Under the pieces are notes generated by a model, which was not told the origin of the DNA, ran no database searches, and was given only the letters and a program-made list of their open reading frames with translations. Below are positions 1 to 18,197 of a DNA stretch of 24,203 nt, one piece after another. Position 1 is the first letter of the stretch, and every line of letters begins with the position of its first letter. The translations under genes were made by a program, and so were the position numbers. The stretch is from a virus. The stretch lies in the IMG/VR virus record IMGVR_UViG_3300006929_000119, positions 1 to 24,203 of that record. The stretch is one strand, 5' to 3'.

Positions 1-658
1 CTTGCGCTATATATATAACTAAAGCCTCTTCCCTAGCCTGGTCTCCTTCGCCATATATTTTTACTTGTTGATTGTATATTTTCTCTCCATCTTCTGTAGA
101 TGTAATAAGCTGTAATCCTCTCTTATATAATGCTGTTCCTTTTGCACCCGATTGCTTTGATTTTAAATAGTCTAAATATATATGGCCAAATTCATGGATA
201 GGAAGTTCTAATGTTTTATCATCAGGGTTTAAATATATTTTACCATCACGGGTAGCTCCATAAGCTACATAACCATCTTTAGTAGTTCTTTTAACTACAC
301 CTGGGTCTTTAAGAGCTTTTTCAAATTCTTCTTGGTTGTCGTATACCTGCGTGCCTGGGAAAGCTTTTTGTAACAAGCCTACAAGTTCTTCTCTAGTTTC
401 AGGACTAGCATCAGGCTCTTGTCTTTGTACTCTAGTTAATTCTTTGCCTTTGAATGGGTCTTGTTTTATTCTGGAACCTACAGGTGCTAAATAGTATCCA
501 GCTTGTTCACCTCTTTCTGTTTGGGTTGATATTAAATCATATCCATATCTTTCGACAATAATTTCAAGTTTTTGAACGTTGTCAATAGTAGAAGGAAAAT
601 AACCAGTTTCTTTGTCGTATTGATAGTCAAGTAGCGTGTTTTCTAAAGGAGCAACAGC
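1..658 (-). other. Zincin-type metallopeptidase region within the giant protein
   Basis: The codons at 182-196 (minus) read HEFGH, residues 1606-1610, inside the context LPIHEFGHIYLDYL. A REEAL stretch follows, with glutamates encoded at 26-31 (residues 1661-1662). HExxH followed about 50 residues later by a helix bearing glutamate is the usual zinc-ligand layout of gluzincin-like peptidases, and this form is common in phage polyvalent proteins. The N-terminal limit is set by the QLSQ motif ending at 659. The C-terminal limit is unknown because the window ends. The target is unknown; it could be self-processing, another virion protein or a host protein. Confidence 0.65.
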
Positions 659-3600
659 CTGACTTAATTGAACACCCCCGTCTCCTTTTCTTCTTCTTTT
701 AATATTTGCCCAGTCTTCTCTAGCCCAAGCAGGAACTTCTGACCTAGCTGTTACATTTTTATTTAACGCACCTTCATCTACTAATACAAACTCTCCGTTT
801 TCTCTTTGACCCCAGTTTCTTCTAGATTTAAAATCATTCCACAACACATCGTAATTAAAAAAATTTGACAATCCCATTTCCTCCATTACTTCTTGAACTT
901 CACTGCCTCTGTTATCAAAATCTGTTTGCGAAAACTTCTGCAAAGGTTTTAAAAATTCTCTTACTGCTTTATCATTTCTAGGTACATTTTCTACAACTAT
1001 ATAATCTTCTCCTCTTTCAAATATATTAGGGACAAAAGGCCCAAGTATATTTAAATCCCCGTAATTCAACGATGTGTTCTGCTGTAAACCTCTAGGGTTC
1101 TTTGCAATTTTAATAACTTTATTGTTTCCTATATCATATACATCACGGGTTGTGCCTCCTGGAATTCTCTTTTCTTTTATATCTTCCAAAGAAACTTTAT
1201 CAAAAGCTATTTCTTCTGTGTTAAATGTTTGGTCATTAGTAAATAAATCAGCTATGGGGCTTTGGCTTAATTGTAAATCACCTGGACTTTCTTCTGTTCT
1301 CCCTAAAACTTCATTAACAATTTTATTCGCCTCTTCAGTTTCTTCACCCGCAACAACTTGTTTCCTTGAAGCAAGGTTTGATAGTTCTTGGTTTAAGACT
1401 CTTAATTGTTTTCCAAATAATTGTTTTGTTAATTCATTCTGTGAGAGTTGATTTTTAGCATTAAAAATATCCATCATTTTAGTTTGCACAGGCAACAAAT
1501 CTGTACTAGCCACACCCTTCTCTCCTAATCCCAGCAACAGTTGAGCGTCTCTTTTGTACCCAATATTTTTCTGAATCTTTTCTTCTGTATTCCCATCAAT
1601 ATAACCAAGCTTACGCATATTATTCGCCCAGTTAGTGGTTTGTTCGTTGTTAAATGTAGAGCCAGAATAGTACTGCGTATCTCCCATTTGTTTGGCTTTT
1701 AATATGTGTTCATTTTTTAAAGCAGTCATAGTTAGATTCATAACAGCGTTACTAGTGTTACTTCCAAAAGCACCTATAGCTTCTAATGCTATTTCATCAG
1801 CTCTAAATGTTTTACCGTTTAATAATGCATTAGCAGATTGCGCTAAATATTCACCATAAGCTTCAGCTGCTGGGTCAACAATAGCTCTTTCTGCTATAAC
1901 TAAACCAGCTCTTCTCCAAGCTTCTGCTCTTGAACCCGCGTTAAATAATCCTTCTTTGCCTATGAATAATTTACCAGCTGTACGTGCACTTAAATAATCT
2001 ACAACAGCAATAGGTATACCTCTAGCCAATCCTACGTCTCTTCCTTCATTCCAAACATTAGGGTCATTCATTGCCATTAACATTTCTTCTGCGTCAAATA
2101 TATCATAACCATTTGCAGTAGCTGCTTCAAACACAGCGTTTGTGTATTCCATTGCTAATATAGTAGCAGAACCACCAAGCATTGTTCCTTTTACCGTTCC
2201 ACCAAGTGCTCCTAAAACTAAATCTGCATTTTCTCTTGCCCAAGCCTTAGGATTTAATTTCTTTCCTGCTCCTATAACTTTTTGCCCAAAATTAGTTTGA
2301 CCACGAGTTCTAAAGCCTCTTTTACGTCTCAATTTAGCTTCAAGGAATCCTGTAGTTCCACCAACAATACCAAAGCCAGGGATAATTTTTAAACCGTACG
2401 GTAACATTTCTGAAAAAGAACCTGCCGCTAATGAACCAGCCATATCTAGCGGATTATCCATAAAGACATTCATTGATTCAGTCCAACCTTTGGCTTTATT
2501 CCACTCCAGCATTTCTTTACTCATTCCTTCACTCTTAGTTACAGAGTTTTCTAAATGTTTAGAAACTTCTATCGCCACCTCTTTTCTACTCATACCCATA
2601 AGCTCTTGCATCTTAACAGGGTTCTCACTAAACAGAGACATTGCTAACAAATACTCTGCGGCTTTTCCTCTTTCTCCACGAGTTATCCATTCGTTTTTTA
2701 CTTGAGGCCAGAAATCTTCTAAAACCACACCCTTTGCTTCTTTTATTGATTTTGAATTTAAATAAGTTTGACTTACTATGTATTGGTCAGCAGCATAAAT
2801 TTTTTGGGCCTCCAGCTCACCCTTGGCTAACGTTATATAGTCCATTATTTCTATCTGTTGCTCATCCAGACTATCTAAATTATTTAAGCGATAGTTTTCT
2901 AATTCTTTTGAAGTAACACCAAATGCCTCTATACTGAATTGGTCTAAAGCTTTTAAGCCCATATTAGCATTGTTTTTTGTGTTGATTGCTTCTACAGTAT
3001 ATGCTTCTCTTCTTTTGGCTGCTTCTAAGTCCCATTGTAAACTAACATCTTGAAAGTTTTTATCTTGTGTAATATTGTAAAGATTGTCTCTCATCTTCTC
3101 AAGCTCTACTTTTCTTTCTGACCAATCACGCCTCATCCTGCCGTCCTTACCAAAAAGCTTAGGGTATTTGTCAATAGTTGCTTTATCCACAATAAGTTCT
3201 TTACCGCCATAAATTTGTGTGCCAATAACATGCCACGGTTTCTCGCCTTTGACAAACGTATTGTTATTTCCTCGGTCAAAGTACCCTATCTCCACTTTGC
3301 TCTTTGGGTCTAGGGCAGCGTAGTCACCTAGAATCGCATCACCTCCCGCTGCAAGTAATCTTTCTTCATCTACACCCAATGCTCTCCCAATTCCTTTTGC
3401 AAACTGCGAATCATTAAAACTCCCTATTCCTTGAATTTCATTAATGAGTAATATTTCGTCTCGGATAGCATCATAATCATTAACAGCTTCCATCATGCCA
3501 TCATAATCTTCAAAACCGTGTGTTTGAAAAAATCTTTCTTTTTCTAGGTCTACAGTATTGTAATCTTTCCATGCCCCTTCAGCAAAAGCTTCTGCTTCTT

Positions 3601-5011
3601 CTTGTGTTTCAAACGCATACTTTTCTCCTCTTTGATTAGCCATTTCTATAATTTCGTCTAGCTGAGTTTCAGGGTCGAACTCTACCCACCTATCTTCATA
3701 AGTAGATTGTACGTTAGGGTCTTTAGGATACAGTGAAGGCATAGCATAATACTTTCCATCTATTTCAACACTTATCATTTTATGTGAAGAATAATCTCCA
3801 GTATCTAAATTAAAACGTTTGCCTGTTCTCGCCTCTTTAATATCAAGCGCTTTAGCAATATTACTTTCCTCAGGGTTAGGCTCCTCAGGAAAACGGGCTT
3901 TGTCATTAACAAACTTTTCAAACAGAGCTAATTCTTCTTTACTTGGATTAGCTATATTTAAATTAAACTGGTCGCTTCCATCTAAAGAAGTAATAGTTAG
4001 GTATTGGTCAGGGTTTTTTGTAGCCACTGTCTCTCTTTTACCTTGCAATTCTTTTTTTACATTATCCAGAGTTAGTGTAGATGGGTCAAAAAATTCTTCA
4101 ACACTCCCCATACCAGTGGTATAAGATATTGGCTTTTCAATTAAAAAACCATATTTACCTATAGTGTTTCTAAGACGTTGTTGATAATCGTCTTGATATT
4201 GTTTTAATTCAGTGGTATTTTCGGTGTCTGTAAATCCTACATTATCTAGAGCAGTTGATACATTGTTTTGAAAACCCTCGTTACTATTAGCATCAAACGC
4301 AAATATCTGCTCACCCTTATCGCCAGCAAAACCTATTATTTGATTTAGACCTGCATTTACTTCTTCTTCAATGAAAGCTTGATATTCTTCCATTGTTTCA
4401 AATTTAGGCTCACCTTTAGGGTTTAGACCTTGGTCGTTAGGTGCAGGATAATTTTTAATATAATCTTTTGGGTCATATTCTATTTCTAAAGAAGTTCTTA
4501 ATTCTTGAGCAACATCGTTCTTTGTTTTTTTTTTCTTAGGGAGAAATTCTTCTGTAGTTTCTTCTCTTACTACATTCCTGTAATCTCTTATAGGAGCACC
4601 TGCTATAGGAGAAGTGGCATCGAGGGGTATAGTTATTTGATTTGGTTTTTCTTCAAATTTCTCAGTTTCTTTACTTATAATACTATCAATAGTTTTTTCT
4701 CTACCTTTAGCATCTTCATCAGGGTTTATACCCAATAGTTTTTCGGACGTTTTTTTAAACCAATCCTTAACACCTGTTGTACCCCTGTCTTGCTCAGCAA
4801 AATCCATTTCTTCCCCTGCTGGATTAGTCATAGGTAAATCAAAAAATTCTTGAAAAGATTGTAGGGTGGGAAAAGTTTCTTTATTTACTACAGTATACAA
4901 ATCTTCAACAGAGTAGTCACCACCAAAAAACTGGGTTAATTGCTCGGGAGAATTAAACATATCAGGAGATTCTAAAACCTGATATAAGTCAGAAAAATTC
5001 AAATCTTCCAT
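1..5011 (-). CDS. Giant internal virion / polyvalent ejection protein, partial (C-terminus beyond left edge)
   Basis: An open frame of 1670 codons starts at ATG 5009-5011 and runs without a stop off position 1. It begins 8 nt after the stop of the gp15-like gene, in the place T7 gp16 occupies. By hand translation: residues 1-65 are acidic and helical. Residues about 415-485 resemble a segment common in large phage internal proteins (YYAMPSLYP, then a FETQEEAEAFAEG stretch). Hydrophobic segments at about 869-890 and 928-954 could cross a membrane. A kinase-like region spans about 1251-1447, and a zincin-type HEFGH lies at 1606-1610 with EE at 1661-1662. Copies of QLSQ sit at 1188-1191, 1247-1250 and 1448-1451. 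Inference: it is packaged in the capsid, injected with the DNA, helps form the envelope channel, and delivers enzymatic domains. No RNA-polymerase DxDxD motif was noticed. The gene and its partial nature are certain; the domain functions are moderately supported. Confidence 0.85.
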   Translation of the reverse strand, partial: MEDLNFSDLYQVLESPDMFNSPEQLTQFFGGDYSVEDLYTVVNKETFPTLQSFQEFFDLPMTNPAGEEMDFAEQDRGTTGVKDWFKKTSEKLLGINPDEDAKGREKTIDSIISKETEKFEEKPNQITIPLDATSPIAGAPIRDYRNVVREETTEEFLPKKKKTKNDVAQELRTSLEIEYDPKDYIKNYPAPNDQGLNPKGEPKFETMEEYQAFIEEEVNAGLNQIIGFAGDKGEQIFAFDANSNEGFQNNVSTALDNVGFTDTENTTELKQYQDDYQQRLRNTIGKYGFLIEKPISYTTGMGSVEEFFDPSTLTLDNVKKELQGKRETVATKNPDQYLTITSLDGSDQFNLNIANPSKEELALFEKFVNDKARFPEEPNPEESNIAKALDIKEARTGKRFNLDTGDYSSHKMISVEIDGKYYAMPSLYPKDPNVQSTYEDRWVEFDPETQLDEIIEMANQRGEKYAFETQEEAEAFAEGAWKDYNTVDLEKERFFQTHGFEDYDGMMEAVNDYDAIRDEILLINEIQGIGSFNDSQFAKGIGRALGVDEERLLAAGGDAILGDYAALDPKSKVEIGYFDRGNNNTFVKGEKPWHVIGTQIYGGKELIVDKATIDKYPKLFGKDGRMRRDWSERKVELEKMRDNLYNITQDKNFQDVSLQWDLEAAKRREAYTVEAINTKNNANMGLKALDQFSIEAFGVTSKELENYRLNNLDSLDEQQIEIMDYITLAKGELEAQKIYAADQYIVSQTYLNSKSIKEAKGVVLEDFWPQVKNEWITRGERGKAAEYLLAMSLFSENPVKMQELMGMSRKEVAIEVSKHLENSVTKSEGMSKEMLEWNKAKGWTESMNVFMDNPLDMAGSLAAGSFSEMLPYGLKIIPGFGIVGGTTGFLEAKLRRKRGFRTRGQTNFGQKVIGAGKKLNPKAWARENADLVLGALGGTVKGTMLGGSATILAMEYTNAVFEAATANGYDIFDAEEMLMAMNDPNVWNEGRDVGLARGIPIAVVDYLSARTAGKLFIGKEGLFNAGSRAEAWRRAGLVIAERAIVDPAAEAYGEYLAQSANALLNGKTFRADEIALEAIGAFGSNTSNAVMNLTMTALKNEHILKAKQMGDTQYYSGSTFNNEQTTNWANNMRKLGYIDGNTEEKIQKNIGYKRDAQLLLGLGEKGVASTDLLPVQTKMMDIFNAKNQLSQNELTKQLFGKQLRVLNQELSNLASRKQVVAGEETEEANKIVNEVLGRTEESPGDLQLSQSPIADLFTNDQTFNTEEIAFDKVSLEDIKEKRIPGGTTRDVYDIGNNKVIKIAKNPRGLQQNTSLNYGDLNILGPFVPNIFERGEDYIVVENVPRNDKAVREFLKPLQKFSQTDFDNRGSEVQEVMEEMGLSNFFNYDVLWNDFKSRRNWGQRENGEFVLVDEGALNKNVTARSEVPAWAREDWANIKRRRKGDGGVQLSQAVAPLENTLLDYQYDKETGYFPSTIDNVQKLEIIVERYGYDLISTQTERGEQAGYYLAPVGSRIKQDPFKGKELTRVQRQEPDASPETREELVGLLQKAFPGTQVYDNQEEFEKALKDPGVVKRTTKDGYVAYGATRDGKIYLNPDDKTLELPIHEFGHIYLDYLKSKQSGAKGTALYKRGLQLITSTEDGEKIYNQQVKIYGEGDQAREEALVIYIAQ
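671..1261 (-). other. Atypical protein-kinase-like region within the giant protein
   Basis: This stretch, bounded by two QLSQ motifs, has the element order of a kinase fold. A glycine-containing strand pair RDVYDIGNNKVIKIAK has a candidate ATP-binding lysine, K1301 (codon 1109-1111). A hinge-like strand DYIVVENVP follows. A catalytic-loop-like DFKSRRNWG gives D1393, K1395 and N1399 (codons within 809-835). VLVDEG then gives D1412 (776-778) in the place of the DFG aspartate. The catalytic-loop spacing is one residue longer than canonical D-x-K-x-x-N. Similar compact kinase-like domains occur in phage polyvalent proteins. The residues needed for activity seem present, but activity is an inference. 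Confidence 0.55.
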
Positions 5012-5019
5012 ACTCTAAA

Positions 5020-7173
5020 CTATTTATTGTATAATCTATAATGTTCGTCTGCCTGCACCCATAACTCAAGTATTTGTTCTTTAGTTAATTCTGGATTAGC
5101 TGCTTTTATTTTGAGTATATCAGGGTTTTCACCGATAACATAACCTGCTATCTCTATATCTGCTGGTACTAACGGGTTATCTTTTTGAATTCTGTTAGAT
5201 ACTATTAATCTACCATCACCCTTATTCCAACTTACTATATTTTTATTTCTTCCTGAATCTGGAATTTCCTTTTTCTTAATTCGATTCGTCATAATAGTTT
5301 CTTGTACTGCAAAATCATCACCTAAAACAGATTTGAAATCATTAGGTCTCAACAATTCTTGTTTACTTGCTGCATCATACATTTTTTTCATTATTGCATC
5401 TAACTTATTCGGGTCTTCGTTTTCTGAATTTATATATATAGGAGCTGTCATGAACTCAGGGTAATAAACCTCCGTATATTCTGTGCCATCATATTCTACA
5501 GGCGATAAACTTTGGTCACTTAACATTTGTCGATTGTTTGCAGGTATTGTTTTAAATATAGTGTTAACAATCGTAATTACATTTTCTGATGATTCGACTT
5601 TAGTGTTAGTAATTAAATCAAGAGTACTTCCAATTACTTCATCTTCTGTCCCAGCTTTGTCTGTTGGCACATCTAGATTCTCATAATTTAATCCTTGTAT
5701 AGTAGTTCCTTGAGTAGACCAGTTTACAGGAACATTGTTTTCTCCTAACTTTCTATCACCAACCATATATCTCTTGTTAAATTTAGGGTTAGATGAAATA
5801 CTTGACACGTCAATACCTTGTAACACCCCGCCTGCTCCTTGGTTTAACCACGCGCTGTTATTACCGAAGCTTGCAGGTATAGTTTTTTGACCACCTTCTT
5901 TCTCGTTTATTACCAACTCAATACCATCATTGTTATCATTAATTCTGATGTCAGCAATAGTAACAAAGTCATTTCCAGATTTTATTTGTTTTCCTAACCA
6001 GAAATTTTTAGCTGATGTCCATTCTTCTAGATTATCTGCGTTTTGTAGAGTCATCCAGTTTGCAGCACTACGAGCATCCATACTAAAGTCTTTCAACATG
6101 TTATTATAATCTTTATCAAAAGTAACCCCAGTAGTTTTAGCAGGTGTAATTTTTCTAGGTAGTTTTACATCTACTGCGCCTTTTAATAATTCTGCCGCAG
6201 CTTTTTTAAGTTTTCTACCATGTGCTGAATCTAAATCTAAATCATACCCACCTCTTTTATTAGGCTGAATATAAATCATATTAGCATCGTTCTTTTTGGA
6301 TTCATCAGTAGTAAATTGAAACGGTAATTCATTCTCTGCTACACCAGCGTAATCATATAATAAACTTGTAACATTTTTTGGGTCTTCTAAGAATGAGTTA
6401 ACTCTGGCATCTAATTGGTTGTTATAATTTTCGTTAAGACGCACATCGTCTTGTTCGCTAATACCTTTCTCTTTAGATAGCGTTTCATAAGTAGTAGCCA
6501 TACCTGCTGCTATGTCTGTAACAGCAGCACTCATATCGAACTTATCATAATCTTCTCCCATCCACCTAGTCATAATAGCAACAGGTCTAAAGTCTCCTGT
6601 ATTTGTAGACATTGTTCTAACAGTTCTCTTATCCGTACCTGTACCTACTGTTTTGTCTACTGTTTTACCTTGTGAAACTTTAAATGTTACAGGGTCTATA
6701 TATAATGCCGTATTAGAAAAATCTAACATTGTTTCTAACAATTCATTTTCATATAGCTTTTGCCCAGCCATTGTTTGGTTTTTTATTTTTTCAGCTTGTT
6801 TTGCAGCAAAGTCATTGTATTTTGTAACTAAAGATATAGCTTGATTTGTTCCAGCCATTAAGTTATTGATGGCTTGAGTATATTGCTTTTTACTCATATT
6901 CCCATTGTCTACAGAACGCTTTAACATAAGTTGGTAATTAGAAGCGTTGTTAGCATAGTCTAACATGTAGTTGTGTAGCTCTTGAGTTTCTCCGTTGGGA
7001 GCAGTTTGTAGTGTAGTAGCTAAATCAGTATCTGCTTTGTCAAGTGCTGCCTGGTCTTGCTCCCTAGCCTCTTGCTCCATTTCAAGCATGTTCGTAAACT
7101 TACGAGCAACCCCGCTCCAGTCTACTCCTTCTGCTGCTTCTCTTTGTGCGTATCCGTAATAAGTTTTTGCCAT
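5020..7173 (-). CDS. Internal virion (ejection) protein, gp15-like position, 717 aa
   Basis: ATG 7171-7173 follows the previous stop by 12 nt, and the gene ends in TAG at 5020-5022. The N-terminal 160 residues are strongly helical and polar (VDWSGVARKFTNMLEMEQEA onward), with further helical and mixed segments and no obvious membrane span or signal peptide. I see no catalytic motif. It sits between a small alanine-rich protein with a hydrophobic N-terminus and a giant protein, reproducing the T7 gp14-gp15-gp16 order. On that basis it is inferred to be a packaged cargo protein that helps form the DNA-ejection conduit. Direct sequence similarity to T7 gp15 is not apparent, so the role rests on position and character. 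It could alternatively correspond to a crAss-like cargo protein. Confidence 0.8.
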   Translation of the reverse strand: MAKTYYGYAQREAAEGVDWSGVARKFTNMLEMEQEAREQDQAALDKADTDLATTLQTAPNGETQELHNYMLDYANNASNYQLMLKRSVDNGNMSKKQYTQAINNLMAGTNQAISLVTKYNDFAAKQAEKIKNQTMAGQKLYENELLETMLDFSNTALYIDPVTFKVSQGKTVDKTVGTGTDKRTVRTMSTNTGDFRPVAIMTRWMGEDYDKFDMSAAVTDIAAGMATTYETLSKEKGISEQDDVRLNENYNNQLDARVNSFLEDPKNVTSLLYDYAGVAENELPFQFTTDESKKNDANMIYIQPNKRGGYDLDLDSAHGRKLKKAAAELLKGAVDVKLPRKITPAKTTGVTFDKDYNNMLKDFSMDARSAANWMTLQNADNLEEWTSAKNFWLGKQIKSGNDFVTIADIRINDNNDGIELVINEKEGGQKTIPASFGNNSAWLNQGAGGVLQGIDVSSISSNPKFNKRYMVGDRKLGENNVPVNWSTQGTTIQGLNYENLDVPTDKAGTEDEVIGSTLDLITNTKVESSENVITIVNTIFKTIPANNRQMLSDQSLSPVEYDGTEYTEVYYPEFMTAPIYINSENEDPNKLDAIMKKMYDAASKQELLRPNDFKSVLGDDFAVQETIMTNRIKKKEIPDSGRNKNIVSWNKGDGRLIVSNRIQKDNPLVPADIEIAGYVIGENPDILKIKAANPELTKEQILELWVQADEHYRLYNK

Positions 7174-7185
7174 AGTTATTTATTG

Positions 7186-8127
7186 TTAGTTTACTGATGA
7201 CGTTACAGCAAAACCACCTGCTGCCGACAAGTCTTCAACAGGAGGATTAGCTAAATCCTTTAAATATTTATCAAATGCTTTTATTCCAGCTGGTGTTAGT
7301 TGTTGTCTAAATGCATCACGAAATGCAGCTTGACCACTCATTTGTGGCTGCCCATCTTTATCTAAAGCTGGACGATTTTGAATTTCAAATGTTTTTGTAA
7401 AGTCTGTATCAGCTAATCCTAATGCTTTCCCTTCATCGGTTTCTAAGAAAGCTTCTACATTAGTTTGCATTGTGCCGTCTACATCTTTACGACCCAATCC
7501 AAGGAATCCTTTCTTACCGTCAAACCTTGCTTCTATTGGTGCCATATCTCCACCTTTTGCAGCTTTTACTTCTCCCATCGCACCTGCAAATGTCATACCT
7601 GCTTTAGCTGTGTCTAAAATTCCTTGAACCCCTGCTGCTTGATATTGACCAGCTTGTTGCTCTGCTCTACCCGCTGCTGCTTGCGCACCTGCTACTTCTT
7701 CTAAATCTAACTGTACTTTCACATCACGCAATCTTGAATCTTCTTTAGCTATCATAGCCTCTAAAGCTTTTTGCTCTTTACTCATTGCTACTCTTTGTTG
7801 TGCTTGCGCTTGATTTTGTGCAGCTAAAACTCTACCTGCTACAGCTGCGGCTCCTCTTTCGCTTTCCGCTCCTGCTGCGGTTGCTTGCGCTCCTGCTGAT
7901 AATAAAGCTTCTCTTTCTAGTTCATAAGCTTCTTTATTGATAGAGAGGTTTTCGTAAAAATTTACATTAAGTTTTTTTCTAGCCTCTTTCATTGCATTTT
8001 CTGCATCAAACTCTGCATCTGCTTGGGCTCTTCTTGCTCGACCCGCAGCGGCAAAATTTATACCCATTCCTGTAGCTGATAAAAGTAGACCTACTCCTGC
8101 AATAACTGCGGTTGCGACTGCTGCCAT
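7186..8127 (-). CDS. Alanine-rich internal virion protein, gp14-like, 313 aa
   Basis: The protein begins with a hydrophobic segment, residues about 3-28 (AVATAVIAGVGLLLSATG), that could insert in a membrane. A long alanine-, glutamine- and glutamate-rich helical or coiled-coil stretch follows to about residue 190, then a less repetitive C-terminal half. A short hydrophobic N-terminus with an Ala/Gln-rich coiled coil is typical of podovirus ejection proteins that form the outer-membrane pore (T7 gp14 type). The start overlaps the end of the cupin-like gene by 37 nt, and the A-rich stretch AAAAGAAATAAAAT precedes the ATG, supporting this start. Overlap and tight spacing indicate co-transcription with the two following ejection genes. 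Specific homology was not tested. Confidence 0.82.
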   Translation of the reverse strand: MAAVATAVIAGVGLLLSATGMGINFAAAGRARRAQADAEFDAENAMKEARKKLNVNFYENLSINKEAYELEREALLSAGAQATAAGAESERGAAAVAGRVLAAQNQAQAQQRVAMSKEQKALEAMIAKEDSRLRDVKVQLDLEEVAGAQAAAGRAEQQAGQYQAAGVQGILDTAKAGMTFAGAMGEVKAAKGGDMAPIEARFDGKKGFLGLGRKDVDGTMQTNVEAFLETDEGKALGLADTDFTKTFEIQNRPALDKDGQPQMSGQAAFRDAFRQQLTPAGIKAFDKYLKDLANPPVEDLSAAGGFAVTSSVN

Positions 8128-8639
8128 ATTTTATTTCTTTTATTTATTATACTTTTAGGCAAATCTTTAAAATCATTTACAAATAATTCAAGCTCTGCTT
8201 CCCTTACATTTGTTTTGTTTGTTTTATGCACACAAGTCCACACAACATCTTCATGTATGTAGAAAACTCTTTGAGCTCCTGCTTTAGTAAAAACTGTATA
8301 AGGAGCTTTTATTCTACATATTTTCCCTTCATCTGTTAAGTAGGATAATTCACCTTTCAATAAAAAAGAAGGGTGATTTGTTTTATGTATCATACTAACT
8401 ACAACTGAGCCTTTTGGCATAAACACTTGTCTGGTATAAAGACCACCTTCAAAAGTATGCTCTAAAGGGAAATATTTTTGTAACCCCTTGCTTTGTTCTT
8501 CTCCAGATTTATGCGTTAAAACTTCTTCTATTTCTTTTAACTGAGTTTGAAACTCTGCAATTTTCTCCCACATCATTCCTCGCTTAGAGGTAACTTCTCC
8601 TAATACTTGTGCTGCAATTAGTGTTTCTTTATTACTCAT
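8091..8639 (-). CDS. Cupin-like phage protein, 182 aa
   Basis: This is the first gene after the promoter at 8654-8661. After a helical N-terminus (about residues 1-50), residues about 58-142 look like a single cupin-type beta barrel. They run through FPLEHTFEGGLYTRQ, a GSVVVSMIHKTNH strand with two histidines, a LLKGELSYL turn, then APYTVFTKAGAQRVFYIHED and a final strand VVWTCVHKT. The glycines and histidines fall roughly where cupin motifs 1 and 2 would. Cupin-like proteins of this kind recur in structural clusters of aquatic phages. A metal site is possible, but no enzyme activity can be assigned. It ends in TAG at 8091-8093, inside the next gene. Its place at the head of the ejection operon suggests a virion or assembly role. 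Confidence 0.75.
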   Translation of the reverse strand: MSNKETLIAAQVLGEVTSKRGMMWEKIAEFQTQLKEIEEVLTHKSGEEQSKGLQKYFPLEHTFEGGLYTRQVFMPKGSVVVSMIHKTNHPSFLLKGELSYLTDEGKICRIKAPYTVFTKAGAQRVFYIHEDVVWTCVHKTNKTNVREAELELFVNDFKDLPKSIINKRNKIWQQSQPQLLQE

Positions 8640-16919: not shown

Positions 16920-17534
16920 CTATACTTTTTTAATACTTAATATTTTATAGGCCTTAGAAACAACTCCTGCATTTGTTATTTTATCTTCCCACTTGCCTGT
17001 AACATTTGGCCATGTAGAATGATATAAATTCTCCACTGCTTCATTATATCCATTCATCATATCTGCACTGTTATCGTTAGCACCATTATTTGCATATACA
17101 AATTGTATTGATAATTGAGGATTATCTCTATTATATAGCAGGTTTAATTTAACATTTGCTGCGTCAGGAGTATTTTCTCTAGCAGTAATTACATCCGACA
17201 CTCCTACCATTTGACTCTGAGTCACTGTATTAGAATATATATAATAATCTCCTTGATTAACAACTCCAGTTCCTAATCCAGCTGTAGCGCCTTTAGGAGT
17301 TAAAGTAAGTTCTGTATTACTGTCTACTGTAGCCACTTGATATAAATGCGGTGACGCTTGTGGCGTACCATTTACTCCGTAAACATATACCCAGTCTCCA
17401 ACAGCTACTGTAGCTACAAAGTTTTGACCTGAGTCATTTAATTTATTTGGCCCATTTCCTGAACCAGTCCCATCTGATGTAGCCTGTCCACTATCGACTT
17501 CTCTTGCTACATCTATTTCCAAAAATTTTTCCAT
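16920..17534 (-). CDS. Small virion-cluster protein of the MEK(F/Y) family with an inserted domain, 204 aa
   Basis: The start chosen is ATG 17532-17534 (MEKFLEIDVA) because it matches the two genes upstream. An in-frame ATG at 17546, directly after the previous stop, would add only MYIK. Residues about 15-95 are a Gly/Ser/Asp-rich segment with a small beta module (VGDWVYVYG, then VATVDSNTELTLTPKG, then DYYIYS). The remaining part (VSDVITARENTPDAANVKLN, then LLYN, then NEAVENLYHSTWPNV) lines up by eye with the whole of the 95- and 99-residue proteins. It therefore looks like the same fold carrying an insertion after the first strand. Function is unknown. Its position next to the capsid gene and its own strong promoter suggest an abundant head-associated or accessory structural protein. 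Confidence 0.75.
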   Translation of the reverse strand: MEKFLEIDVAREVDSGQATSDGTGSGNGPNKLNDSGQNFVATVAVGDWVYVYGVNGTPQASPHLYQVATVDSNTELTLTPKGATAGLGTGVVNQGDYYIYSNTVTQSQMVGVSDVITARENTPDAANVKLNLLYNRDNPQLSIQFVYANNGANDNSADMMNGYNEAVENLYHSTWPNVTGKWEDKITNAGVVSKAYKILSIKKV

Positions 17535-17546
17535 TTTTATATACAT

Positions 17547-17834
17547 TTAAGCTGTTGCTATTGTGTCAACATATCCATCTTTCTTCGCGAGATAAGGGTA
17601 AGCTACTTCAGTCCAACCTGTTGCTAAAGCTGCTTTTACTGCATTTTGTACAGAAGTCTGTAATGCAGGAAATGCTTCACCATTAGGCCAAGTAATAGTA
17701 GTTACTCTTCCACCGTTGTAAGAAAGTTTAACAACAGTAGTACTAGTTTGTTCCACTAGTTTTAAGTCGTGTAAAGCTACTAGTTGCGTAGGGCCTCCAG
17801 AGCTTGCGACATTAATTTTTAAAAATTTTTCCAT
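17547..17834 (-). CDS. Small tandem-paralogue protein B (MEKFLKINVA), 95 aa
   Basis: The start chosen is ATG 17832-17834. In-frame ATGs further upstream, as far as 17912, lie inside the preceding gene, and the chosen ATG sits in exactly the same leader context as paralogue A. The protein has a first strand MEKFLKINV, a DLKLVEQTSTTVVKLSYNGG segment and a C-terminal helix VQNAVKAALATGWTEVAY. It aligns by eye over its full length with the 99-residue neighbour (IKGIEQLSTTKVKMIYGNGK; VSDAVEAALSTDWRSV), so a tandem duplication is very likely. No transmembrane segment, signal peptide or catalytic motif was seen. Small multicopy proteins of this style recur in aquatic phage structural regions, but I cannot assign a function. 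Confidence 0.75.
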   Translation of the reverse strand: MEKFLKINVASSGGPTQLVALHDLKLVEQTSTTVVKLSYNGGRVTTITWPNGEAFPALQTSVQNAVKAALATGWTEVAYPYLAKKDGYVDTIATA

Positions 17835-17859
17835 AATAAATAATAAAATTAGGTTAATA
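17825..17859 (-). repeat. 35-nt direct repeat, copy B (leader plus first codons of paralogue B)
   Basis: Identical in all 35 positions to 18150-18184, in the same orientation and 325 bases away. It spans the bases between the stop of paralogue A (17860) and ATG 17834, plus the first ten coding bases (ATGGAAAAAT). Confidence 0.93.
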
Positions 17860-18159
17860 TTAGTTTTGTGATACAGCCGTCCATTCTGCTTGTGCGCCTG
17901 ATGCTGCAACAAAAGAACAGTCTACAACGCGGGTTACACTTCTCCAGTCGGTTGATAAAGCTGCTTCTACCGCATCACTTACAAGAGTTCTTGGTGTAAC
18001 AACTGCTGCTCCAACTGCCGTGTGGTCTAGCTCAATGTTTTTACCGTTTCCGTAAATCATTTTTACTTTAGTAGTACTTAATTGCTCTATGCCTTTAATA
18101 TCGTTGCAAGAAATCATAAAATTTCCCAACGCTGTTTTAATTGTTATGTATTTTTCCAT
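17860..18159 (-). CDS. Small tandem-paralogue protein A (MEKYITIKTA), 99 aa
   Basis: The start chosen is ATG 18157-18159. An upstream in-frame ATG at 18192 overlaps the promoter element and would precede the expected transcription start. The protein has a first strand MEKYITIKTALGNFMIS, then DIKGIEQLSTTKVKMIY, then a helix LVSDAVEAALSTDWRSV and a C-terminal tail ending TAVSQN. It is the first gene of the small-protein operon, with a promoter about 30 nt upstream and a leader that is duplicated before paralogue B. Homology to B is clear by eye although identity is low. No known function. The compact strand-strand-helix layout would suit a virion accessory protein; this is inference. Confidence 0.75.
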   Translation of the reverse strand: MEKYITIKTALGNFMISCNDIKGIEQLSTTKVKMIYGNGKNIELDHTAVGAAVVTPRTLVSDAVEAALSTDWRSVTRVVDCSFVAASGAQAEWTAVSQN

Positions 18160-18184
18160 AATAAATAATAAAATTAGGTTAATA
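18150..18184 (-). repeat. 35-nt direct repeat, copy A (leader plus first codons of paralogue A)
   Basis: Identical to 17825-17859. Its upstream edge (18184) coincides with the transcription start expected about 6 nt after the -7 element at 18190-18197, so the repeat equals nearly the whole mRNA leader plus the first codons. Confidence 0.93.
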
Positions 18185-18189
18185 AAGTA

Positions 18190-18197
18190 CAAAGATA
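18190..18197 (-). promoter_or_regulatory. Bacteroidota-type -7 promoter element (TATCTTTG) for the small-protein operon
   Basis: TATCTTTG lies 30 nt upstream of ATG 18159 and 3 nt beyond the T9 tract of the preceding terminator. Its context (CTCT9AGTTATCTTTGTA) is almost identical to that of the promoter at 16853-16860. Confidence 0.7.

What the first reader, a model, noticed from the sequence alone, without database searches (positions are those of the whole stretch)
1..5011. Giant ejection protein carrying enzymatic domains: a candidate polyvalent effector injected with the genome
The gene sits where T7 gp16 would be, and its product has two hydrophobic segments (about 869-890, 928-954). 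In the C-terminal part it adds a kinase-like region and a zincin peptidase motif. Known polyvalent proteins of phages and conjugative elements string such domains together to act on the host at DNA entry. A kinase-like and a peptidase domain at the end of an ejectosome protein of a crAss-like or flavobacterial podovirus could be an undescribed takeover or anti-defence device. At least 1670 residues are visible, and more domains may lie beyond the left edge.
Basis: partly seen in the sequence, partly recalled or inferred. Interest (0 to 1): 0.78.

Follow-up and report, generated by a model that had tools for sequence, protein, structure and literature searches.

The report
Phage entry protein carrying kinase, protease
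A phage that probably infects flavobacteria makes a roughly 3,000-residue protein, encoded where short-tailed phages encode the largest protein they push into the cell with their DNA, and this one carries a small kinase and a protease-like domain, with the kinase place apparently taken by other enzymes in related phages.

Summary
The ORF (2..5011, minus strand) is the first 1,670 codons of a gene with 2,986 codons in close IMG/VR relatives (94% identity). It ends a small-middle-giant gene trio after portal and head genes, the layout of T7 gp14-15-16 and N4 gp52-51-50. Residues 1263-1447 fold as a minimal kinase (pLDDT 78.5; 48 of 50 listed PDB matches are named kinase-fold enzymes); the catalytic Lys, Asp, Asn and Asp are invariant in 13 sequences. 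Residues 1531 onward are zincin-like: HExxH and a later Glu are invariant in 10 of 10 sequences. In relatives sharing the core, other stretches (ParB-like; tentatively ART- or GNAT-like) replace the kinase while the zincin stays; in a second phage group an ART is added between kinase and zincin. So this is a phage-type polyvalent protein (Iyer 2017) in the giant-ejection-protein place, a known kind. The kinase lacks three features stated for the published polyvalent-kinase clade. The exchangeable slot and a recurrent border peptide (VQLSQ-like) are the added points. Best mechanism: the modules are ejected into the cytoplasm, where the zincin may cut at these borders and free the kinase. Packaging, activity and cutting are untested.

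The parts
2..5011 (-). 5' 1,670 codons of the giant ejection/polyvalent protein gene (full length 2,986 aa in L003)
3203..5011 (-). N-terminal region, residues 1-603, fastest evolving of the regions compared (dN/dS 0.257, L003 vs L004)
1340..3202 (-). conserved core region, residues about 604-1224, Gly-rich weakly hydrophobic segments at 869-890, 928-954, 999-1017; membrane-associated by inference only
1262..1276 (-). border peptide LQLSQ (residues 1246-1250), start of the kinase module
671..1225 (-). minimal kinase domain, residues 1263-1447; K1301, D1393, N1399, D1412 invariant
659..673 (-). border peptide VQLSQ (residues 1447-1451), end of the kinase module
2..421 (-). zincin-like metallopeptidase domain, residues 1531 onward, continues beyond the window
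182..196 (-). HEFGH zinc-binding motif, residues 1606-1610
26..28 (-). E1662, invariant Glu in the expected third-ligand position
5020..7173 (-). 717-aa protein, middle gene of the trio (T7 gp15 / N4 gp51 position; phrog_35506)
7186..8127 (-). 313-aa protein, small gene of the trio (T7 gp14 / N4 gp52 position; phrog_13764 virion structural protein)

Best explanation
The gene encodes the largest of three ejection (internal virion) proteins of a flavobacterial podovirus. The N-terminal and C-terminal parts do the structural work: packing in the capsid, crossing the envelope, holding the inner membrane. Between the conserved core region and the C-terminal part the protein carries an enzymatic cargo, here a minimal kinase followed by a zincin. 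By analogy with T7 gp16, whose segment between its two membrane regions lies in the host cytoplasm, the cargo would be placed in the cytoplasm as the DNA enters. There the kinase would phosphorylate host proteins early in infection. The zincin would act mainly on the protein itself, cutting at the borders to free the modules or dismantle the conduit. Shown here: architecture, predicted kinase fold, invariant catalytic residues, purifying selection, exchange or addition of modules between relatives. Inferred: packaging, injection, membrane topology, kinase activity, cutting, target.
For: Trio order small-middle-giant among the virion genes in the window (313/717/2,986 aa) and in ctfjg026, Tenacibaculum phage Gundel_1, Cellulophaga phi38:1 and phi13:2 (giant annotated as two genes), Flavobacterium elemoA, Maribacter Panino, L038, L039 and N4. 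The giant is labelled (virion) structural protein in Gundel_1, phi38:1, phi13:2 and elemoA. Kinase fold. Zincin. Kinase has the lowest dN/dS of seven regions (0.069; others 0.083-0.257; L003 vs L004). Modules exchanged or added. Basic C-terminus (+13 in the last 30 residues of L003), as reported for T7-like gp16. Precedents: DEV gp71 and N4 gp50.
Against: No virion proteomics for this phage or its near relatives was found; the 'structural protein' labels are database annotations whose experimental basis I did not see (phi38:1's note says by similarity to another phage), and ctfjg026 and Panino giants are labelled otherwise ('reticulocyte binding/rhoptry protein', 'tRNA methyltransferase'). The trio equivalence with phi38:1, phi13:2, elemoA, Panino and N4 rests on gene order: A3 and A2 do not match phi38:1 gp101, the 313-aa protein matched no phage record and the 717-aa one only ctfjg026. 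The C-terminal part does not match N4 C2 (E 0.22); the zincin match to N4 is in register but weak (E 0.0058, 26 columns). No lytic transglycosylase was found. The kinase has Asn before the catalytic Asp and DEG for DFG, so a pseudokinase is possible; its Foldseek TM-scores are low (0.35-0.45). Three of 17 giants tested have a neutral or negative C-terminus.
Confidence: 0.72

Rival explanations
1. The kinase and zincin act inside the producing cell or the capsid, before infection: maturation enzymes that modify virion proteins, then are packaged as passengers.
For: The gene ends the run of structural genes, so it is probably expressed late (inference). Phage P1 DdrB is cleaved before packaging, as reported in PMC5512222 (passages).
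Against: N4 vRNAP, which also has a zincin-like domain, is packaged unprocessed and works after injection (passages of PMC5512222 and PMC12633501). A maturation enzyme would be expected to be constant, but the kinase is not found in L016, L017, L027 and ctfjg026, which keep the zincin.
Confidence: 0.2
2. The kinase-like domain is a pseudokinase, a binding or regulatory module without phosphotransfer, and the protein is a structural gp16-like protein.
For: HD replaced by ND and DFG by DEG or DGG in 12 of the 13 aligned sequences; the best VIA row is ULK4, whose entry 6tsz in the same list is called a pseudokinase.
Against: The Lys, Asp, Asn and Asp of the active site are invariant in 13 of 13; dN/dS 0.069; effector kinases OspG, HopBF1 and NleH2 are among the structural matches.
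Confidence: 0.2
3. The zincin is an effector against host proteins, or a peptidoglycan peptidase for entry, not a self-processing enzyme.
For: An effector role is one of those proposed for zincins in conflict systems (PMC5512222 passages). No other cell-wall enzyme was found in this protein; the entry role is my own suggestion.
Against: The zincin is kept in 10 of 10 aligned sequences with different cargo, and a recurrent peptide marks module borders. Neither excludes an effector role.
Confidence: 0.3
4. Assembly artefact or broken gene in a metagenome.
For: The window is a 24 kb fragment; one relative contig (L018) is frameshifted.
Against: Other contigs carry the open frame at 94% and 77% identity in full and at 76% up to a contig end; dN/dS is below 0.26 in all seven regions compared.
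Confidence: 0.01

Closest known systems
Phage-type polyvalent proteins (Iyer et al. 2017, PMC5512222; abstract and passages seen)
   Same: Very large, multidomain, near virion genes, zincin as hub; kinase, ART, GNAT and ParB among their domains
   Different: No Pfam MPTase or LPD model matched L003; the kinase lacks three features stated for their kinase clade; sits in an ejection-type trio
N4/DEV virion RNA polymerase (gp50/gp71), third ejection protein of Schitoviridae (passages of PMC10925440, PMC12633501)
   Same: Trio order; giant chain with N-terminal part, enzyme, zincin-like domain, then a large C-terminal part (N4: zincin-like 2124-2375, then to 3500; here about 1,240 residues after the zincin)
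   Different: Kinase in place of RNA polymerase; no significant match of the C-terminal parts; weak match of the zincins
T7 gp16 / P22 gp16 ejection proteins (passages of PMC8954989)
   Same: Gene position; basic C-terminus; a weakly hydrophobic region before and a hydrophobic segment after the middle part
   Different: 2,986 aa against 1,318 (T7) and 609 (P22); no transglycosylase domain found, extra enzymes; sequence not compared directly
Tenacibaculum phage Gundel_1 gp74 (cultured, Pachyviridae)
   Same: Homologous zincin (27.8% identity, L003 residues 1585-1735), same trio
   Different: GNAT-like stretch instead of kinase (below Pfam cut-offs); 2,482 aa
Phage T7 protein kinase and other phage kinases
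   Same: Phage-encoded kinase fold; T7 kinase phosphorylates host proteins (PMC5512222 passages)
   Different: T7 kinase is made in the host after entry (recalled), not carried in the virion; homology beyond the fold not shown

Membership tests
Phage-type polyvalent protein | several domains with disparate activities in one large chain | tested here: met
   kinase fold and zincin in one chain; ART-PolyVal (over the Pfam cut-off) joined to the same kinase type in L036 and L039
Phage-type polyvalent protein | zincin with HExxH on one helix and Glu on a later helix | tested here: met
   HExxH and E1662 invariant in 10 of 10; helices 361-372 and 413-439 of the model. No fold search of the zincin alone
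Phage-type polyvalent protein | gene among virion genes | tested here: met
Phage-type polyvalent protein | transferred into the host with the DNA | not testable with these tools
   needs experiment
Published polyvalent kinase clade (text of PMC5512222) | loss of the C-terminal kinase subdomain with active-site residues kept | tested here: met
   judged by length: about 35 of 185 modelled residues follow the metal-binding Asp; active-site residues invariant
[quoted passage not shown] Glu before strand 2; insert between catalytic His and Asp | tested here: not met
   last N-lobe strand carries invariant Glu; no conserved Glu before strand 2; Asn-Asp (His-Asp in L061) adjacent. Their alignment was not seen, only the text
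T7 gp16-like ejection protein | largest gene after gp14- and gp15-like genes | tested here: met
   by order and size only
T7 gp16-like ejection protein | N-terminal lytic transglycosylase (T7 type; absent in P22 type) | tested here: not met
   no such Pfam match in P0001 or P0002
T7 gp16-like ejection protein | present in the virion and ejected | not testable with these tools
   needs proteomics and infection assay
N4 vRNAP family | single-subunit RNA polymerase domain | not tested
   no direct comparison with the RNAP part was run; no RNAP family appeared in the Pfam or PHROGs scans
N4 vRNAP family | homologous C-terminal part | tested here: inconclusive
   zincin E 0.0058 over 26 columns in register; C2 E 0.22

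The most novel reading that the evidence does not exclude
Each of these phages writes its own processing code into its giant ejection protein: a short peptide repeated at module borders ([VLP][QSA]LSQ in the window clade, SFQL in L036) that a virion-borne protease (the zincin in the window clade) recognises after injection, releasing each effector as a free enzyme in the host. The code also marks where modules are swapped, so the slot is an exchangeable effector magazine, loaded with kinase, ART, GNAT or ParB-like modules, on a conserved entry machine.
Probability: 0.2. Interest if true: 0.8.

Novelty: new variant of a known kind. Interest (0 to 1): 0.52.

Why it matters
It ties two literatures: ejection proteins as envelope-crossing machines and polyvalent proteins as injected effectors. 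The same gene order in cultured flavobacterial phages (Gundel_1, phi38:1, elemo, Panino) makes the question of whether a podovirus delivers enzymes on its entry machine directly testable outside the N4 group. The recurrent border peptide, if confirmed as a cutting site, would explain how one long chain can act at several places in the cell.

Tried and rejected
Pfam, PHROGs, NCBIfam and PADLOC gave nothing above chance or cut-off for the kinase or the zincin of this clade. Profile searches of the PDB by sequence gave no credible relative (propeller designs for the kinase, best E 0.0013 over 18 columns; TP53RK E 0.13 for the zincin profile). tblastn of the L024 kinase against 50,697 phage records found nothing. 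phi38:1 gp101 does not match the A3 or A2 profiles; it matches Gundel_1 gp74 over 19% of that protein at 21.8% identity. PMC13288928 (passages) has no mention of gp101 or gp100, so it says nothing on phi38:1's giant; PMC11590407 (passages) gives no virion proteomics for Panino.

The border-peptide test was made after I had seen the motif. [VLP][QSA]LSQ is found at 3 places in 7 of 7 kinase-clade proteins that span the region (2 in the window protein, which is cut before the third), against 0.01-0.02 expected in shuffles, but these sequences are related; it is found in 0 of 12 other giants. A search for any recurrent 4-mer gave SLSQ at 3 places in L023 and SFQL at 4 places in L036, but also other 4-mers: KREA, RGLQ and KLIA in L023, five more in L036 (two overlap SFQL), and some in most giants, near the shuffle expectation in many; in P0002 itself none recurs three times. 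A looser pattern [VFLI]Q[LIAF][SEAM] was not enriched. L018 was dropped because of frameshifts, L026 because only its C-terminal part is held; L002, L040 and L041 were not analysed further, as near-copies of L003 and L039. ART-like in L016 and GNAT-like in L017 were read by eye and have no Pfam support; GNAT in Gundel_1 (E 0.0018) and ParB in L027 (E 0.00067) are below the Pfam cut-offs. That the C-terminal part is LPD38 was tested: 1 of 12 records matched (L037's contig), at the contig end and below the cut-off. Homology of the C-terminal part with N4 C2 was not supported. In L016 against L023 the stretch between the second border peptide and the zincin is not alike either (score 30; shuffled mean 31), so only the upstream edge of the exchange is sharp. 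The dN/dS script stopped at a division by zero during the window-L003 comparison; only L003-L004 is complete.
Full report
What is there. The window is a 24,203-base virus record. On its minus strand it encodes a portal protein (phrog_6547), a head protein (phrog_13704; major capsid by position, my inference), other virion proteins, a short-tail-fibre-like protein and, at the left edge, a 1,670-codon open frame. Two IMG/VR contigs carry the complete gene, 2,986 codons, 94% identical over the visible part; a third, 77% identical, has 2,973. The visible part is a little over half of the protein. Beyond it (L003) two of the convergent genes encode a 362-aa and a 411-aa protein (the latter helicase-like by eye).

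Position. The giant gene is preceded by a 717-aa and a 313-aa gene. The order small-middle-giant among the virion genes recurs in ctfjg026 (302/644/3,859 aa), Gundel_1 (225/511/2,482; there the portal lies downstream), phi38:1 (200/549/1,691), elemoA (202/450/3,694), phi13:2 (225/509, then 87 and 1,990 annotated as two genes), Panino (216/500/1,829), L038 and L039 (234-238/505-509/2,546-2,795, stop to stop) and in N4 (150/644/3,500). Not every stretch fetched reached the portal. It is the order described for T7 gp14-gp15-gp16 and for DEV gp73-gp72-gp71 (passages of PMC8954989, and PMC10925440). The head protein matches 85 phage records: 68 Flavobacterium, 15 Cellulophaga, one Maribacter phage and ctfjg026 (some are GenBank/RefSeq pairs), so the host is probably a flavobacterium. 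Whether the phage is crAss-like was not tested.

Kinase. Thirteen sequences align; the Lys of strand 3, the catalytic Asp, the Asn after it and the metal-binding Asp are invariant (K1301, D1393, N1399, D1412 in the window protein; roles assigned by me). A distant stand-alone relative (L061, 26-28% identity) has the canonical HDxxxxN...DFG loop. The domain alone is predicted with pLDDT 78.5 and pTM 0.74. Foldseek against the PDB: best E 4.4e-4 (RIO1); of the 50 rows listed of 1,342, 48 are named kinases or kinase-fold enzymes (RIO, aminoglycoside and protein kinases, one SAICAR synthase) and two are unnamed chains of pre-40S particles; TM-scores are only 0.35-0.45. VIA: best Z 8.2 over 136 residues at 3.9 A (ULK4). 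Against viral models 57 matches at E<=0.001; of the 50 rows listed 15 are named kinases or kinase-like, most others are unnamed or uncharacterised. In L003 against L004 it is the most constrained of seven regions (dN/dS 0.069; N-terminal part 0.257). The domain lacks most of the C-lobe, as in the published polyvalent kinases, but not with their other stated marks (text of PMC5512222).

Zincin. In 10 of 10 sequences aligned (87% to 26% identical to L003) HExxH and a later Glu are invariant, with AFP, YG and NP upstream. The model gives helix, strands, HExxH helix and a later helix with the Glu, at block means of 73-86 pLDDT for residues 361-430 of a model that is poor overall (58.3); this is the order described for polyvalent zincins. 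Gundel_1 gp74, from a cultured phage with podoviral morphology (PMC8776804, passages), has a homologous zincin (27.8% identity). phi38:1, phi13:2 and L036 giants have no HExxH.

The slot. Outside the kinase, the nearer relatives share a core region (L003 597-1217) and a C-terminal part of over 1,000 residues. Between them lies what varies: kinase (window, L003, L004, L008, L009, L023-L025), ParB-like (L027, E 0.00067), two stretches like the C-terminus of DNA polymerase III epsilon/PF12843 (below cut-offs) and a second HEFGH (ctfjg026), ART-like by eye (L016), GNAT-like by eye (L017). In a second phage group L038 and L039 (96% and 71% identical on the kinase side, 39% after it) differ by an ART-PolyVal domain (E 6.2e-15) placed between kinase and zincin in L039. 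L036 joins the same kinase type to ART-PolyVal. L016 against L023 shows the upstream edge of an exchange: a 58-residue coil is homologous (score 171; best of 300 shuffles 63) up to two residues before the VSLSQ peptide, the kinase is not (51; best shuffle 69), nor is the stretch after it (30; mean 31), and the zincin is again.

Border peptide. LQLSQ and VQLSQ bracket the kinase, and LALSQ follows the zincin; [VLP][QSA]LSQ stands at the same three places in 7 of 7 proteins of the clade that span the region, down to about 46% identity; 0 of 12 other giants have it. L036 has SFQL at 1193 and 1401, on both sides of its kinase (1194-1381), at 1986, just after its ART domain (1794-1979), and at 2710. 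The test was post hoc and the sequences related, and other 4-mers recur too, so I treat the peptide as a lead.

Mechanism. I commit to an ejected polyvalent protein (0.72). In T7 gp16 the segment between the two membrane regions is modelled in the host cytoplasm (PMC8954989 passages). Here the enzymes lie between the weakly hydrophobic core region and the only strongly hydrophobic segment (L003 2810-2835). N4 gp50 gives the nearest layout: N-terminal part, RNA polymerase, C1 with HExxH (2124-2375), then C2 to 3500 (PMC12633501 passages). I tested homology to it: the zincins align in register but weakly (E 0.0058), the C-terminal parts do not (E 0.22). So it is laid out like the N4 protein; membership is not shown.

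Novelty. The kind is known: polyvalent proteins since 2017, and a giant enzyme shown as an ejection protein in Schitoviridae in 2024. Searches of the held library for papers joining these themes showed none on flavobacterial phages in the listings seen (7 of 7, 12 of 36, 15 of 23, none found); subscription papers are mostly not in it. What is added is the variant, the exchange slot and the border peptide.

Noticed in passing
window 16920-18192: Three tandem small genes (208, 121, 110 aa frames) begin alike around MEKF/Y..., two with a near-identical leader INLILLFIMEK: probable paralogue array.
   Followed up: no
window 8091-8639: Short-tail-fibre-like gene (phrog_12032, E 3.2e-29) overlaps the start of the 313-aa gene by 37 bases.
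   Followed up: no
L062:31750-37239: Maribacter phage Panino's giant trio gene is annotated 'tRNA methyltransferase'; Pfam gave only a weak SHOCT match, but it may be another cargo type.
   Followed up: partly
L005:19104-30683: ctfjg026 giant protein (annotated 'reticulocyte binding/rhoptry protein') has two PF12843/DNA polymerase III epsilon-C-like stretches and two HEFGH motifs.
   Followed up: partly
L044:8432-19516: Flavobacterium elemoA giant protein has a DUF3293 domain (E 1e-12, residues 1323-1392) and an HEIFH motif at 1543.
   Followed up: no
L018:8221-16878: The giant gene of this contig is broken into several frames, probably by sequencing errors.
   Followed up: partly
L061:2542-3255: A stand-alone 237-aa kinase of the same type with a canonical HD...DFG active site, in an uncultured bacterium contig (perhaps phage).
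   Followed up: partly
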